From positions 1 to 24,642 of IMG/VR virus record IMGVR_UViG_3300011113_000065: 24,642 bases of DNA; one strand, 5' to 3'. The DNA comes from a virus. The notes beneath the pieces were generated by a model. That model searched no databases, was not told where the DNA came from, and saw only the letters and a program-made list of their open reading frames with translations. The position numbers and the translations under genes were made by a program. Below, piece by piece: positions 10,837 to 16,772 of this stretch; position 1 is the first letter of the stretch, and every line of letters begins with the position of its first letter.

Positions 10837-10866
10837 AGTGTATTGGGCTTTTGGGATTCGTGTCAA
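10837..10866 (-). promoter_or_regulatory. Leftward promoter for packaging and head genes
   Basis: On the minus strand TTGACA (10866-10861) and TACACT (10842-10837) are separated by 18 bp, a good sigma70-type match. The expected start point, about 10830, is only 3-5 nt before the terS ATG at 10826, and there is no ribosome site in between. An AACCC-N3-GGGTT palindrome is centred at 10885, just upstream of the -35, where an activator or repressor could act. Confidence 0.6.
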
Positions 10867-10901
10867 TGGGGATTATTGAACCCGCTGGGTTAGTGGTGTC
10901 T

Positions 10902-10930
10902 GGGATTTTTGAAAAAATAAAAAAATTGTT
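10902..10930. other. AT-rich tract beside the palindrome array
   Basis: A run made almost only of A and T (including GAAAAAATAAAAAAATTG at 10911-10928) lies between the first palindrome and the very GC-rich array. Such a sharp AT block next to repeated protein-binding sites is a common layout of replication origins, where it serves as the unwinding region. It could equally be an upstream (UP-like) element or intrinsic bend. Confidence 0.4.
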
Positions 10931-11010
10931 CGCGGTGCCTCCCGGCCCAGCACCCCGGGTCGCTCGGCCCCCGCCCGCCCCCTCCCCCGCTGGACCCCGG
11001 CCAAATCGGC

Positions 11011-11080
11011 ACCCGGCGACCCAGCGGGGCGGGGCACCCGGCACCCGGCGACCCAGCGGGGCGGGGCACCCGGCATCCGG
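11011..11080. repeat. Tandem 32-bp direct repeat, two full copies and a partial third
   Basis: The 32 bases at 11011-11042 recur exactly at 11043-11074. Each begins ACCCGGCG and carries one ACCCAGCGGGG near-palindrome. A degenerate third start (ATCCGG) follows from 11075. This block forms the left part of the larger array. Confidence 0.85.
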
Positions 11081-11081
11081 C

Positions 11082-11189
11082 ACCCAGCGGGTCAGGGGAT
11101 CGCGGGGCACCCAGCGGGTTACAGTGGGTCAATTGACCCGGTGGGTCAGGGATTCAGGGGAAACCCAGCGGGTCAGGGGATCGCGGGGC
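11082..11189. repeat. Four tandem 27-bp repeat units
   Basis: Units start at 11082, 11109, 11136 and 11163, each headed by ACCC-N3-GGGT. The first and fourth are identical over all 27 bases; the middle two keep the head and vary after it. Regular phasing of heads (about 2.6 helical turns) is like iterons or a cooperative operator array. Confidence 0.85.
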
Positions 11190-11455
11190 TAGATTGACCC
11201 ACTGGGGCGGGAAACCCCCGATTTAGACCGATTCAGGGCGACCCCGTGGGTTTTTTGGGGCGTTTGTGACATTTGCGCCTTTCGCGCAGGCGACCCCCCG
11301 ATTTTACGACTTTTTGAAACAGCACTTATTTTCTGGAATCCTTGAAACCGACCCCCTGAGATAAAAGGAACAATTGTCACCACTGACCAACGGCTAACCC
11401 AGCGGGTCAGGAAAGCATTACCCCCTGGGTTTAGTGGGTTATTTAATCGCAGGGG

Positions 11456-11484
11456 TTGACAGGGCAAACCCAGTGGGTTACATT
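11456..11484 (+). promoter_or_regulatory. Strong rightward promoter for the small-gene operon
   Basis: TTGACA at 11456-11461 and TACATT at 11479-11484 are separated by exactly 17 bp, the best promoter match in the window. The expected start is near 11491, giving a leader of about 33 nt before the first ATG at 11524. The spacer is filled by an operator-like palindrome (next entry). Confidence 0.7.
11467..11479. promoter_or_regulatory. Operator-like palindrome inside the promoter spacer
   Basis: AACCCAGTGGGTT is a 13-bp palindrome apart from its central base. It occupies the space between -35 and -10 and touches the first T of the -10. A protein bound here would block RNA polymerase, the classic position of a phage repressor. 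It is one member of the dozen-strong array to its left. Confidence 0.6.
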
Positions 11485-11493
11485 TACCTCACC

Positions 11494-11516
11494 GTAACCC
11501 GTAACCCTGAAAGGAC
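11494..11516 (+). repeat. Leader repeat, copy 1 (with ribosome site)
   Basis: This 23-nt stretch begins GTAACCCGTAACCC and ends in the ribosome site GAAAGGAC. It recurs exactly at 11748-11770 and 11908-11930, in each case just before a small gene. It supplies the Shine-Dalgarno for the gene at 11524. Confidence 0.85.
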
Positions 11517-11523
11517 CGCAATC

Positions 11524-11712
11524 ATGAACAAGTCAGAAACCCGCGAAATCAGCAAGCTTACCCAGTACCGCGCCCTTGGTGCCGATAGCGGGATGCTCGC
11601 CCGCTCATTGTCTGCTCTGATCCGTGCCGCTCGCACTGCCCGCAGTGCCGATGCGATCCGCGCAGTGGCGCAGGACTGGGGCGTAACCGATCATCCTGAA
11701 TTCATTTGCTGA
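11524..11712 (+). CDS. Small hypothetical helical protein
   Basis: This 62-residue protein is the first product of the rightward early-type operon. It begins MNKSETREISKLTQYRALGA and continues with SALIRAARTARSADAIRAVA, which reads as two or three helices. AAAGGACC lies 8 nt before the ATG. The opening N-K-S-E-T resembles that of the gene at 11937 (T-K-S-E-T), so leader and first codons may have been duplicated together. The SALIRAAR-type helix occurs in small early proteins of other phages, but I know no function. Confidence 0.7.
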   Translation: MNKSETREISKLTQYRALGADSGMLARSLSALIRAARTARSADAIRAVAQDWGVTDHPEFIC

Positions 11713-11743: not shown

Positions 11744-11774
11744 CTCTGTAACCCGTAACCCTGAAAGGACTAGA
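11744..11774 (+). repeat. Leader repeat, copy 2 (31 nt)
   Basis: These 31 bases, from CTCTGTAACCC to GGACTAGA, are identical to 11904-11934 and include the 23-nt core also found at 11494. They provide the GAAAGGAC ribosome site for the gene at 11777. Confidence 0.9.
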
Positions 11775-11776
11775 TC

Positions 11777-11911
11777 ATGAACCGCCATTCTCAGTACTAC
11801 TTCGATCTGAACCGCCGTAACCCCCCGCCCCCTGAATGGGCCATTGTGGGCGGGGCAGTGGTCGCCACTGTCGCCCTTTGGTGCCTGATCGCTTTTCTGT
11901 TTTCTCTGTAA
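11777..11911 (+). CDS. Small single-pass membrane protein (44 residues)
   Basis: The gene encodes MNRHSQYYFDLNRRNPPPPE followed by WAIVGGAVVATVALWCLIAF and LFSL. A polar N-terminal part of about 20 residues with three Arg precedes one clear membrane helix (residues 21-42), so the N-terminus is probably cytoplasmic. The ribosome site GAAAGGAC lies in the duplicated leader, and the stop codon is itself part of the next leader copy. Tiny membrane proteins in early phage operons often act in superinfection exclusion or host takeover; that role is only a possibility here. Confidence 0.65.
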   Translation: MNRHSQYYFDLNRRNPPPPEWAIVGGAVVATVALWCLIAFLFSL

Positions 11912-11934
11912 CCCGTAACCCTGAAAGGACTAGA
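11904..11934 (+). repeat. Leader repeat, copy 3 (31 nt)
   Basis: Exact copy of 11744-11774, overlapping the last codons and stop of the membrane-protein gene and supplying the ribosome site for the GTG-started gene at 11937. Confidence 0.9.
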
Positions 11935-11936
11935 CC

Positions 11937-12242
11937 GTGACTAAATCCGAAACCCCCTCAATCCTTGGCGCCCTTGTAGACCGGCTCGCCGAGATCAAGG
12001 CTCAGACTGCGGATCTGACCGCTGAGAGCGAGACAATCAAAGAATTTTTGATTTCTTCGGGGATGCCCGCGATTGAGGGCACTGCTCACCGGGCCGCTGT
12101 TTCCCTGCTCGCGGGGCGCGAGCGGGTAGATTGGGAAACCATAGCCCGCCGGTTCGAGCCGTCCCGCCAATTGATCGCTGCTCACACCACTGTCGGCGAG
12201 CCTTACCATGTCGTCCGGGTGTCTGCCCGCAAGGGGGTCTGA
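11937..12242 (+). CDS. Hypothetical early protein, coiled-coil plus small domain
   Basis: This 101-residue protein starts with GTG, 6 nt after the duplicated GAAAGGAC leader. Residues 8-42 form an amphipathic helix or coiled coil (GALVDRLAEIKAQTADLTAE, then SETIKEFLISSG). A compact second part follows, with AIEGTAHRAAVSLLAGRERV and RQLIAAHTTVGEPYHVVRVS. This two-part plan, with a closing x-x-A-H-T-T ... V-R-V-x-A-R-K, recurs in small phage proteins of unknown function and resembles recombination-associated accessory proteins. I give no function. Confidence 0.7.
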   Translation: MTKSETPSILGALVDRLAEIKAQTADLTAESETIKEFLISSGMPAIEGTAHRAAVSLLAGRERVDWETIARRFEPSRQLIAAHTTVGEPYHVVRVSARKGV

Positions 12243-12244
12243 TC

Positions 12245-12499
12245 ATGGACATGATGCAAGTAGCCCTCGCCGTTTTCAATGATCAAAGCACCGAAGCGGC
12301 CCGATCAATAGCCCTCAAACACTTCGCAAATGGGGCCGAATGGGACGGGGCAGTGCAAACCCTTTTGCCCACAGTGTTTGCCGAATTGAAAAAGCCCATT
12401 TATGAGGGGGTCGCATTCGATGATACGGCATGGACTGCCGCGGCCCATGTGCTTGATCTACAAGTGCAATACGCTATCGATTGCAAGGGGGTCGCATGA
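12245..12499 (+). CDS. Small hypothetical protein
   Basis: This 84-residue acidic, mostly helical protein starts MDMMQVALAVFNDQSTEAAR and contains FANGAEWDGAVQTLLPTVFA and AAHVLDLQVQYAIDCKGVA. I chose the ATG at 12245 because a GGGGG ribosome site lies just before it and the start is 2 bp after the previous stop. The longer reading from 12131 would overlap the previous gene. The end overlaps the next ATG (ATGA). No family recognised. Confidence 0.6.
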   Translation: MDMMQVALAVFNDQSTEAARSIALKHFANGAEWDGAVQTLLPTVFAELKKPIYEGVAFDDTAWTAAAHVLDLQVQYAIDCKGVA

Positions 12500-13172
12500 A
12501 ATACCACTTCATCCGCGAGAGCGGCAACCGAAAAACCGGCCCGATCCCCGTAACCTACTCTGAGCGGGGCACTTGCCCGCAATCGTGCCCGCATTACCGG
12601 GCAGACTGCTATGCCGAAGACTTTTACACCCGATTGAGTGGGATAAAGTGCCCCAGCGGGGCGGGCCGCTCGAAGCGCTTACCCGCTCGATTGTGGCACT
12701 GCCTGAGGGTCAACTGTGGCGCCACAATGTCGCCGGGGATCTGCCCGGGGCGGGGGAATCGGTTGATCCGGTTGCACTGGGCGAAATCGTCCGGGCTAAC
12801 TTGGGCCGCAGGGGGTTTACCTACACCCACAAGAAAAGCCCCGAGGCTATCGAGTGGGCGGGCCATGCTACCCGCTGGGGTTTCACTGTAAACCTAAGCG
12901 CTGATGACGCGGGCGAAGCCGATGCACTGGCCGAAACGGGCTTGCCGGTGGTCGCAATCGTGCCGATTGACTGCCCCGAGAAAACCGAAACCCCAGCGGG
13001 CCGGACCATCATCGTCTGCCCCGCTCAGACCCGTGAGGATGTTTCCTGCGCCACTTGTGGGCTTTGCGCCCGGGCCGATCGGCGCGTAATTATTGGGTTC
13101 CGTGCTCATGGAACCCGTGCCCGGGTTACCGATGCGAAAGCTCGCCGGGTGATTCCAATTGTGAAAGGCTGA
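12496..13172 (+). pseudogene. DUF7227-type cysteine-rich protein split by an apparent frameshift
   Basis: The first 48 codons from ATG 12496 read MKYHFIRESGNRKTGPIPVT and CPQSCPHYRADCYAEDFYTR. In this frame the product then turns into an unrelated sequence. The matching continuation lies in the -1 frame from about 12639: WDKVPQRGGPLEALTRSIVA, LWRHNVAGDLPG, RGFTYTHKKSPEAI, TVNLSADDAGEADALAE and CATCGLCARADRRVIIGF. Joined, they give about 225 residues with Cys clusters C-x3-C and C-x2-C-x2-C at the two ends, the plan I recall for DUF7227. One missing base near 12631-12642 would explain it. It could be a real null mutation, a sequencing error or recoding; I see no canonical slippery heptamer. 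The Cys clusters suggest a metal or Fe-S site, unproven. Confidence 0.65.
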
Positions 13173-13486: not shown

Positions 13487-13783
13487 ATGACCGACAAACA
13501 ATTCTCGATTGACCTGCAAGCCCTGATTGCCCGCCGGGGGCTATGTGAAACCCGGGCCGCTGGCTTGCTGGGGGTGCCCGTGTACACCCTCAGAAAATGG
13601 ACTGCGGGCCAACGGGCACCCAGTGCCGCCGCCGTCCGATTGCTGGGGGTACTAAGCGCCCTGGAAGCACTCGCCCCCGCCCTGCTCGAAGCGCTGGAAC
13701 CGGCGCCCCTGACCGCGCCGCCCGCGCCCCTGGCGCCGCCGCCCCGGCGCAAAGGGGGCAGGCCGCGCAAAAAGTCTGACTAA
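13487..13783 (+). CDS. Helix-turn-helix DNA-binding regulator with basic tail
   Basis: This 98-residue protein reads FSIDLQALIARRGLCETRAA then GLLGVPVYTLRKWTAGQRAP, a standard Cro/CI-type HTH (about residues 6-45: the A-A-x-L-L-G-V turn and recognition helix V-Y-T-L-R-K-W). A helical part follows (RLLGVLSALEALAPALLEAL), probably for dimerisation, then a Pro/Ala linker and a basic tail KGGRPRKK similar to an AT-hook. The ATG at 13487 was preferred to the TTG at 13475, which lies in the terminator U-tract. It is a candidate repressor for the palindrome array upstream of the operon, but no direct evidence links them. The stop codon is the first TAA of the iteron array. Confidence 0.78.
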   Translation: MTDKQFSIDLQALIARRGLCETRAAGLLGVPVYTLRKWTAGQRAPSAAAVRLLGVLSALEALAPALLEALEPAPLTAPPAPLAPPPRRKGGRPRKKSD

Positions 13784-13891
13784 GGCATCGAACCAGCCGT
13801 CAGGCCGGTTAAGGCTTTGAACCAGACAATGGGCTGACTAAGGCATCGAACCAGCCGTCAAGCCGGTTAAGGCTTTGAACCAGACGATGGG
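13776..13891. repeat. Four 16-bp iterons at exact 29-bp spacing (two 58-bp tandem units)
   Basis: TAAGGC(A/T)T(C/T)GAACCAG occurs at 13781, 13810, 13839 and 13868, each exactly 29 bp from the next. Copies alternate between the ATC and TTT versions, so the block is also a 58-bp tandem repeat (13776-13833 and 13834-13891) with two base differences. It lies between convergent genes, where no promoter is needed. The spacing sequences are not unique in the CRISPR sense, and no good terminator is formed. A binding array for a replication or partition-like protein is plausible. Confidence 0.85.
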
Positions 13892-13900
13892 CCAATTCGA

Positions 13901-16571: not shown

Positions 16572-16772
16572 ATGAGCACATCCAAATCTGTGTTTCTGAC
16601 CGTGCGAGTTGCGGCCAGTACACGCACCAAGTTTCACGCCAAGGCCAAGAAGTACGGGCAGCCGTCTACTGTCTTGCGTGAAATCATAGAGGCGTTTCTC
16701 GAAGACCGCCTTTCCATTGTCCCTCCCGTAAACCGTAAGGAAAATCTTTATGTCACTCGAAGCCAAAATTGA
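16572..16772 (+). CDS. Ribbon-helix-helix type DNA-binding protein
   Basis: This 66-residue basic protein reads MSTSKSVFLTVRVAASTRTK, then FHAKAKKYGQPSTVLREIIE and AFLEDRL. A short beta strand (S-V-F-L-T-V-R-V), helix, turn (G-Q-P-S) and second helix is the Arc/CopG plan, in which the paired strands read the DNA. As the first gene behind the interlocked promoters it could be an autoregulator of this operon, a common arrangement; this is inference. GAGGA stands 8 nt before the ATG. The C-terminal 20 residues overlap the next gene. Confidence 0.7.
   Translation: MSTSKSVFLTVRVAASTRTKFHAKAKKYGQPSTVLREIIEAFLEDRLSIVPPVNRKENLYVTRSQN

What the first reader, a model, noticed from the sequence alone, without database searches (positions are those of the whole stretch)
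10879..11478. Dense array of ACCC-N3-GGGT palindromes in the divergent control region
At least twelve near-identical 11-mers lie in 600 bp with no gene, and four of them are exactly 27 bp apart (11082, 11109, 11136, 11163). The commonest core is ACCCAGCGGGT, but centres vary (GCT, GGT, AGT, CGT, CCT, ACT) while the ACCC/GGGT arms stay, which is what protein-binding sites under selection look like. One copy is next to the leftward promoter and one is inside the rightward promoter. I know no described phage operator with this sequence. It could be a multi-site repressor system, a replication origin or a packaging signal.
Basis: partly seen in the sequence, partly recalled or inferred. Interest (0 to 1): 0.75.

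Follow-up and report, generated by a model that had tools for sequence, protein, structure and literature searches.

The report
Phage early-late switch operator array
A cluster of short mirror-image DNA sites between the early and late genes of a widespread freshwater virus of bacteria is most likely where one small virus protein binds to shut off early genes and turn on late genes, and about 100 related viruses keep its promoter sites at fixed positions.

Summary
The window holds nine exact ACCC-N3-GGGT sites, all in 10880-11478 (0.38 expected in the whole window), plus three one-mismatch copies there. The array persists in relatives of this roughly 37-kb P22-like podophage clade, down to 51% TerS identity, and is rare elsewhere in their genomes.

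Two placements suggest what it does. (1) At the rightward early promoter a site fills the gap between TTGACA and TAnnnT in 64 of 89 long loci; most of the rest overlap or abut -35. That fits repression by occlusion. (2) Upstream of the late terS promoter (extended -10, weak -35, near-leaderless) the site lies 41-44, 51-54 or 61-64 bp from the ATG in 98 of 111 nonredundant loci, and none lies at 45-50 or 55-60. The period is 10.5 bp, one DNA turn, so the bound protein must face RNA polymerase.

Best explanation: a lytic early-to-late switch run by the XRE-type HTH protein at 13487-13783, present in all 15 array genomes tested and resembling MqsA, whose operator is ACCT-N3-AGGT. Binding, repression and activation are inferred, not shown. 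Origin, packaging and terminus readings found no support. Known kind of logic; new regulator, operator and phage group.

The parts
10837..10842 (-). PL (late, terS) extended -10, TACACT, 10 nt before the terS ATG (10826)
10861..10866 (-). PL -35, TTGACA on the minus strand
10880..10890 (.). ACCCGCTGGGT: PL site, 53 bp from the terS ATG; predicted centre about -55/-56 from the start point
10906..10929 (.). conserved A/T tract upstream of the PL site (possible UP element or bend)
11019..11029 (.). ACCCAGCGGGG, one-mismatch site
11051..11061 (.). ACCCAGCGGGG, one-mismatch site
11082..11092 (.). ACCCAGCGGGT, middle cluster
11109..11119 (.). ACCCAGCGGGT, middle cluster
11136..11146 (.). ACCCGGTGGGT, middle cluster
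11163..11173 (.). ACCCAGCGGGT, middle cluster
11197..11207 (.). ACCCACTGGGG, one-mismatch site
11241..11251 (.). ACCCCGTGGGT
11265..11291 (.). conserved TGTGACA...CCTTTCGCGCAGGC element in the middle of the control region, function unknown
11397..11407 (.). ACCCAGCGGGT
11420..11430 (.). ACCCCCTGGGT, companion site 48 bp upstream of the PR operator (47-48 and 58-61 bp are the common spacings in relatives)
11456..11461 (+). PR (early, rightward) -35, TTGACA
11468..11478 (.). ACCCAGTGGGT: PR operator, inside the 17-bp spacer and abutting the -10
11479..11484 (+). PR -10, TACATT
13487..13783 (+). XRE/MqsA-like HTH protein (98 aa), likely the array-binding regulator, in the rightward early operon
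16572..16772 (+). ribbon-helix-helix-like small protein, second candidate binder (present in all array genomes tested); fold assigned by eye, no Pfam hit

Best explanation
The array is the control centre of a lytic early-to-late transcription switch. A small, presumably dimeric XRE/MqsA-like HTH protein (13487-13783), encoded in the rightward early operon, binds the ACCC-N3-GGGT sites. At PR the bound site lies between -35 and -10 and blocks RNA polymerase, so the early operon and the regulator's own gene shut down as it accumulates. At PL the site lies upstream of a weak -35 on one fixed face of the helix, so the same protein touches RNA polymerase and switches on terS and the leftward late operon. 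The middle cluster probably raises local occupancy or joins the two promoters in one nucleoprotein complex. Shown here: the sites, their conservation, the operator position in PR and the 10.5-bp phasing at PL. Inferred: the identity of the binder, repression, activation and the role of the middle cluster.
For: Nine exact sites, all in this region. The array is kept upstream of terS across relatives, with few copies elsewhere. PR is TTGACA-N5/6-site-TAnnnT in 64 of 89 loci with at least 900 bp; by eye most of the rest have a site overlapping or abutting -35. PL site-to-ATG distances are 41-44 (31 loci), 51-54 (50) and 61-64 (17), vector strength 0.864 with its maximum at 10.5 bp. Measured to the -10 they are 26-28, 36-38 and 46-48, predicted centres near -45, -55 and -65. 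The other sites show little phase relative to the PL site (0.17), and the class changes at least 41 times on a TerS tree. PL has an extended -10 and a usually weak -35. The HTH gene is the only gene between the array and the primase found in nearly all loci long enough to show it, and is in 15 of 15 array genomes. Its best PDB profile match is MqsA (E 0.011) and 12 of 17 members hit the MqsA family model; MqsA binds ACCT-N3-AGGT using N97 and R101 (PMC5422877). MW202483 lacks both this HTH and this motif and carries a GTTTA-N2-TAAAC array in the same place.
Against: There are no binding or expression data. The RHH-like protein co-occurs with the array just as perfectly. Helical phasing also fits repression by contact with RNA polymerase (GalR type). 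The promoters are consensus matches only. The MqsA similarity is weak and below family cut-offs. The middle cluster and the conserved CCTTTCGCGCAGGC element are not explained. The TerS tree rests on a short protein, so the number of class changes is approximate, and loci are not fully independent.
Confidence: 0.6

Rival explanations
1. The same protein only represses: it occludes PR and, from the phased upstream site, holds PL off by contacting RNA polymerase or by looping to the middle cluster; late genes come on when it is removed or titrated by replicated DNA.
For: GalR-type contact repression and loop repression are also phase-dependent (own knowledge). Many sites per control region suit loops. 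About 28% of PL promoters have a good -35 (5-6 of 6). Distances of other sites to the PL site show a weak but sharp 10.5-bp signal (0.171).
Against: The PL -35 is usually weak with an extended -10, as at activator-dependent late promoters. The phages look lytic: no integrase is annotated in DSL-LC05 and no HTH relative was found in genome contigs. If the regulator is the early-made HTH, its accumulation would keep late genes off.
Confidence: 0.2
2. The array and switch are as described, but the binder is another phage protein, chiefly the RHH-like protein at 16572-16772.
For: It is present in 15 of 15 array genomes and absent from the array-less MW202483, exactly like the HTH. RHH proteins often bind arrays of short palindromes (own knowledge).
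Against: Its predicted DNA-contacting strand varies between phages (FLTVRV, FLNVRL, HMTLRV, YLSARV) while the motif does not. It lies beyond the primase, outside the PR operon. The HTH resembles proteins with 4-3-4 operators.
Confidence: 0.13
3. The array is the origin of replication, with the sites as iterons.
For: Repeats beside an A/T tract (10906-10929) and a conserved element CCTTTCGCGCAGGC could make an origin.
Against: The promoter-proximal sites are locked to promoter elements, not to each other. A separate conserved tandem array (TAAGGCWTCGAACYAACC, 29-42 bp period) sits beside the primase gene in at least 31 loci and is a better origin candidate. An origin could still coexist with the switch.
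Confidence: 0.05
4. The array is a packaging (pac/cos) signal or genome terminus next to terS.
For: It lies directly upstream of terS, and about a dozen contigs end 49-233 bp upstream of terS.
Against: The ends are scattered rather than at one point, and a 36,271-bp contig overlaps itself by about 127 bp there, as a circular assembly does. P22-like pac sites lie inside terS (own knowledge). Packaging does not explain operators inside PR or phasing at PL.
Confidence: 0.02

Closest known systems
phi29 p4/p6 early-late switch (A2c, A2b / A3)
   Same: Neighbouring early and late promoters on opposite strands; one early protein at several inverted repeats represses early promoters and activates a late promoter with a poor -35 (PMC3100819)
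   Different: p4 has a unique fold; four sites of the type CTTTTT-15-AAAATG with A-tracts, two of them over early -35 elements; needs p6. Here an XRE-type HTH, a compact 11-bp GC-rich site, usually 5-10 sites over about 600 bp, and the PR operator in the spacer
MqsA antitoxin and its operator
   Same: 4-3-4 palindrome with arms ACCT/AGGT against ACCC/GGGT; MqsA is the best PDB sequence-profile match to the HTH
   Different: No zinc-binding N-terminal domain in the 98-aa protein, no MqsR toxin found beside it; MqsA has one or two operators, not a promoter-spanning array
Restriction-modification C proteins (C.AhdI, C.Esp1396I)
   Same: Small XRE protein that activates from one operator and represses from another; structural neighbours of the model; C boxes are of the GACT-N3-AGTC type (own knowledge)
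   Different: Different arms, two adjacent operators only, linked to restriction-modification genes
Lambda CI operator/PRM logic
   Same: One phage HTH protein represses a divergent promoter and activates another by touching RNA polymerase (own knowledge)
   Different: Lysogeny switch with 17-bp operators; here a lytic-looking phage with 11-bp sites and no lysogeny genes seen

Membership tests
MqsA family antitoxin | C-terminal XRE-type HTH domain | tested here: met
   Best PDB profile match is the MqsA HTH (E 0.011); 12 of 17 members hit TIGR03830, best 1.8e-6, below its cut-off; fold match to 3fmy
MqsA family antitoxin | Zinc-binding N-terminal domain | tested here: not met
   The 98-aa protein begins at the HTH and has no CxxC motifs
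MqsA family antitoxin | MqsR toxin gene alongside | tested here: not met
   Neighbours are DUF7227, a short coiled-coil-like ORF and the primase; no toxin seen among them
MqsA family antitoxin | Operator ACCT-N3-AGGT | tested here: inconclusive
   Same geometry and outer three bases, but the inner base of each arm is C/G instead of T/A (against PMC5422877)
phi29 p4-type early-late switch | Sites of one protein at both an early and a late promoter, with the late -35 poor | tested here: met
phi29 p4-type early-late switch | p4 fold | tested here: not met
   The candidate is an XRE-type fold
phi29 p4-type early-late switch | Protein represses early and activates late transcription | not testable with these tools
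   needs reporter assays
Restriction-modification C protein | Linked restriction and modification genes | tested here: inconclusive
   None annotated in DSL-LC05 apart from an HNH endonuclease and a 'putative endonuclease'; not searched by profile
Replication origin (iterons) | Initiation of replication at the repeats | not testable with these tools
   A better-placed candidate array exists at 13776-13892
cos/pac or genome terminus | Fixed genome ends at one position | tested here: not met
   Contig ends are scattered and one contig is circularly overlapping

The most novel reading that the evidence does not exclude
A previously undescribed XRE/MqsA-like phage protein runs the whole early-late switch of a lytic, widespread freshwater podophage clade (proposed 'Luchaoviridae') from one array, activating late genes from sites near -45, -55 and -65 that have been exchanged many times in evolution but almost only by whole helical turns, giving about 100 natural promoter-spacing experiments.
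Probability: 0.45. Interest if true: 0.7.

Novelty: new variant of a known kind. Interest (0 to 1): 0.56.

Why it matters
It gives a testable transcription programme to an uncultured but widely sampled phage group whose regulation seems undescribed, and names a small protein and a simple 11-bp code behind it. The natural series of late promoters in which the upstream site has moved by whole helical turns is an unusually clean data set on how bacterial regulators contact RNA polymerase.

Tried and rejected
Genome terminus/cos: contig ends near the array are scattered and one near-complete contig overlaps itself, so they look like assembly breaks. Prophage: no HTH relative found in genome contigs, no integrase annotated in DSL-LC05. 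Another regulator, the MarR/TrmB-like WJZ48148, is in only 5 of 15 array genomes. MerR-type activation at PR: spacers are mostly the normal 16-17 bp. Coevolution of the arms with the recognition helix inside the clade: uninformative, because the motif stays the same even where helix residues change (G011 keeps T34 and K37; L335 has A34 but keeps K37). Distant HTH hits in two Akkermansia phages have no such array near them, and L336-L339, L340 and L343 are unrelated phages with no TerS, TerL or primase match. No paper in the library holds ACCCAGTGGGT together with 'phage'. Pfam gave no confident family for the HTH. Errors were a wrong start coordinate of mine; one search was a formatting error.

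Full report
WHAT IS THERE. The window is a 24.6 kb fragment of a podophage. To the left, on the minus strand, lie terS (Sf6-like), terL, a P22-like portal, a tail spike and a scaffold. To the right is a rightward set of small genes, then a primase-helicase on the minus strand, then exonuclease, ssDNA-binding protein, polymerase and helicase on the plus strand. The nearest named relative is Phage DSL-LC05 (OR003940; TerL 83% identical), exemplar of the proposed family 'Luchaoviridae' (PMC10611076, where the words 'promoter' and 'repressor' do not occur). Between terS and the first rightward gene are nine exact ACCC-N3-GGGT sites, all the exact copies in the window, and three with one mismatch.

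CONSERVATION. TerS homologues from IMG/VR keep 3-11 exact sites within 900 bp upstream of terS in nearly all loci with enough DNA, and mostly none elsewhere. Loci fetched by the HTH protein show the same. Fifteen near-complete genomes hold 1-8 exact sites each, mostly clustered in this region. L335, with TerS only 51% identical, keeps the array. The spacer is strictly three bases: 620 cases against at most 22 for any other spacer of 0-8. In 586 distinct contexts the first spacer base is A in 77% of half-sites, and among one-mismatch copies the two inner C/G bases almost never change. Exceptions: L042 and L071 have no site at the terS promoter, and a low-GC lineage (L047 group) has mainly one-mismatch copies.

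EARLY PROMOTER. In the window TTGACA (11456) and TACATT (11479) are 17 bp apart, and the site 11468-11478 fills the downstream part of that spacer. The layout TTGACA-N5/6-ACCCnnnGGGT-TAnnnT occurs in 64 of 89 nonredundant loci with at least 900 bp of upstream DNA. Reading the others by eye, most have a site that overlaps -35 (TTG[ACCC...) or runs into it (...GGGT]TGACA), and a few use the spacer with a poorer -35. A protein on such a site should block RNA polymerase. The ordinary 16-17 bp spacer speaks against MerR-type activation.

LATE PROMOTER. Upstream of terS is a conserved gTGnTAnnnT extended -10 that ends 9-10 nt from the ATG in about 108 of 111 loci, so the mRNA should be nearly leaderless. 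The -35 is mediocre: 44 of 110 match three or fewer of six bases. The nearest site ends 41-44 bp (31 loci), 51-54 bp (50) or 61-64 bp (17) before the ATG. A few are at 73, 75, 84, 94 and 96 (and one outlier at 9), and none at 45-50 or 55-60. Vector strength is 0.864 and is greatest at a period of 10.5 bp. Measured to the -10 the gaps are 26-28, 36-38 and 46-48 bp, putting site centres near -45, -55 and -65. Other sites show little phase relative to this one (0.17). At least 41 changes of spacing class are needed on a TerS tree (short protein, FastTree, so approximate). The spacing has therefore changed many times and almost always by whole helical turns, the signature of a protein that must face RNA polymerase.

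WHO BINDS. Small early genes come and go between phages, but the HTH gene (window 13487-13783) is found in nearly all loci that extend far enough and in 15 of 15 near-complete array genomes. Its model has five helices with an XRE-type HTH (mean pLDDT 85, tail disordered). Foldseek neighbours are HigA2, the C proteins C.AhdI and C.Esp1396I, MqsA and Aca2, all with E above 0.04. The best PDB profile match is MqsA, and the NCBIfam model hit by most members is the MqsA family, below its cut-off. MqsA binds ACCT-N3-AGGT, and its Asn97 and Arg101 matter for binding (PMC5422877; PMC4894380). Here each arm differs by one base, and K37 aligns with Arg101 in the profile alignment. K37 is invariant in 79 distinct HTH sequences (the scan pattern and filter favoured the GVP part, so invariance of G29, V30 and P31 is biased) and in two strongly diverged ones. 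The relative MW202483, without this motif, also lacks this HTH and carries another palindrome array, GTTTA-N2-TAAAC, at the same place. Weakness: the RHH-like protein at 16572 shows the same presence and absence. Its DNA-contacting strand is more variable, which is why I rank it second.

HOW IT WORKS. Early in infection PR fires and makes the small early proteins, HTH among them. As HTH builds up it fills the PR operator and stops its own operon. At PL it binds upstream on the right face and helps RNA polymerase use a promoter with a weak -35. This is the logic of phi29 p4, where one early protein represses A2b/A2c and activates A3, whose -35 is also poor (PMC3100819). Shown: positions, phasing, conservation. 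Inferred: binder, repression, activation, order of events. The middle cluster may build a nucleoprotein complex or raise local concentration; I have no direct evidence for it.

ALTERNATIVES. A pure repressor with contact or loop repression at PL remains possible. An origin is less likely, because a different conserved tandem array (TAAGGCWTCGAACYAACC, mostly 29-34 bp period) starts at the HTH stop codon and lies beside the primase in at least 31 loci. Packaging or genome termini are unlikely: contig ends are scattered and a near-complete contig overlaps itself.

NOVELTY. Divergent switches and operator arrays are known kinds. I found no described phage with this operator (one literature query), this regulator or this phase-stepped late promoter, so I call it a new variant of a known kind.

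Noticed in passing
window 13776-13892; the same place in L148-L223 downstream of the HTH gene: A second conserved tandem array (TAAGGCWTCGAACYAACC, mostly 29-34 bp period) starts at the HTH stop codon and lies beside the primase gene in at least 31 loci; candidate replication origin.
   Followed up: partly
window 11265-11291 and 47 of 91 relatives: Conserved TGTGACA...CCTTTCGCGCAGGC element, part of an inverted repeat in some relatives, in the middle of the control region; function unknown.
   Followed up: partly
window 11490-11526, 11744-11780, 11904-11940: A near-identical GTAACCCGTAACCCTGAAAGGA leader precedes three successive small early genes, and similar copies occur in many relatives: a reused 5' leader/ribosome-site cassette.
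   Followed up: partly
L086 13052-13425 (MW202483): A related phage without this HTH has a GTTTA-YG-TAAAC palindrome array at the same terS-divergent place, as if regulator and array were exchanged as a module.
   Followed up: partly
terS start, window 10826, and about 108 of 111 relatives: The late promoter -10 is only 9-10 nt from the terS ATG, predicting a near-leaderless first late gene.
   Followed up: partly
window 12481-13172: The DUF7227 gene is split over two reading frames (ORFs 12481-12891 and 12573-13172): frameshift, assembly error or programmed shift.
   Followed up: no
L155, L161, L166, L167, L173, L187, L203, about 1.1-2.7 kb after the HTH start: In a lower-GC lineage two extra exact sites exactly 571 bp apart lie in or near the primase gene; possibly coding coincidence.
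   Followed up: no
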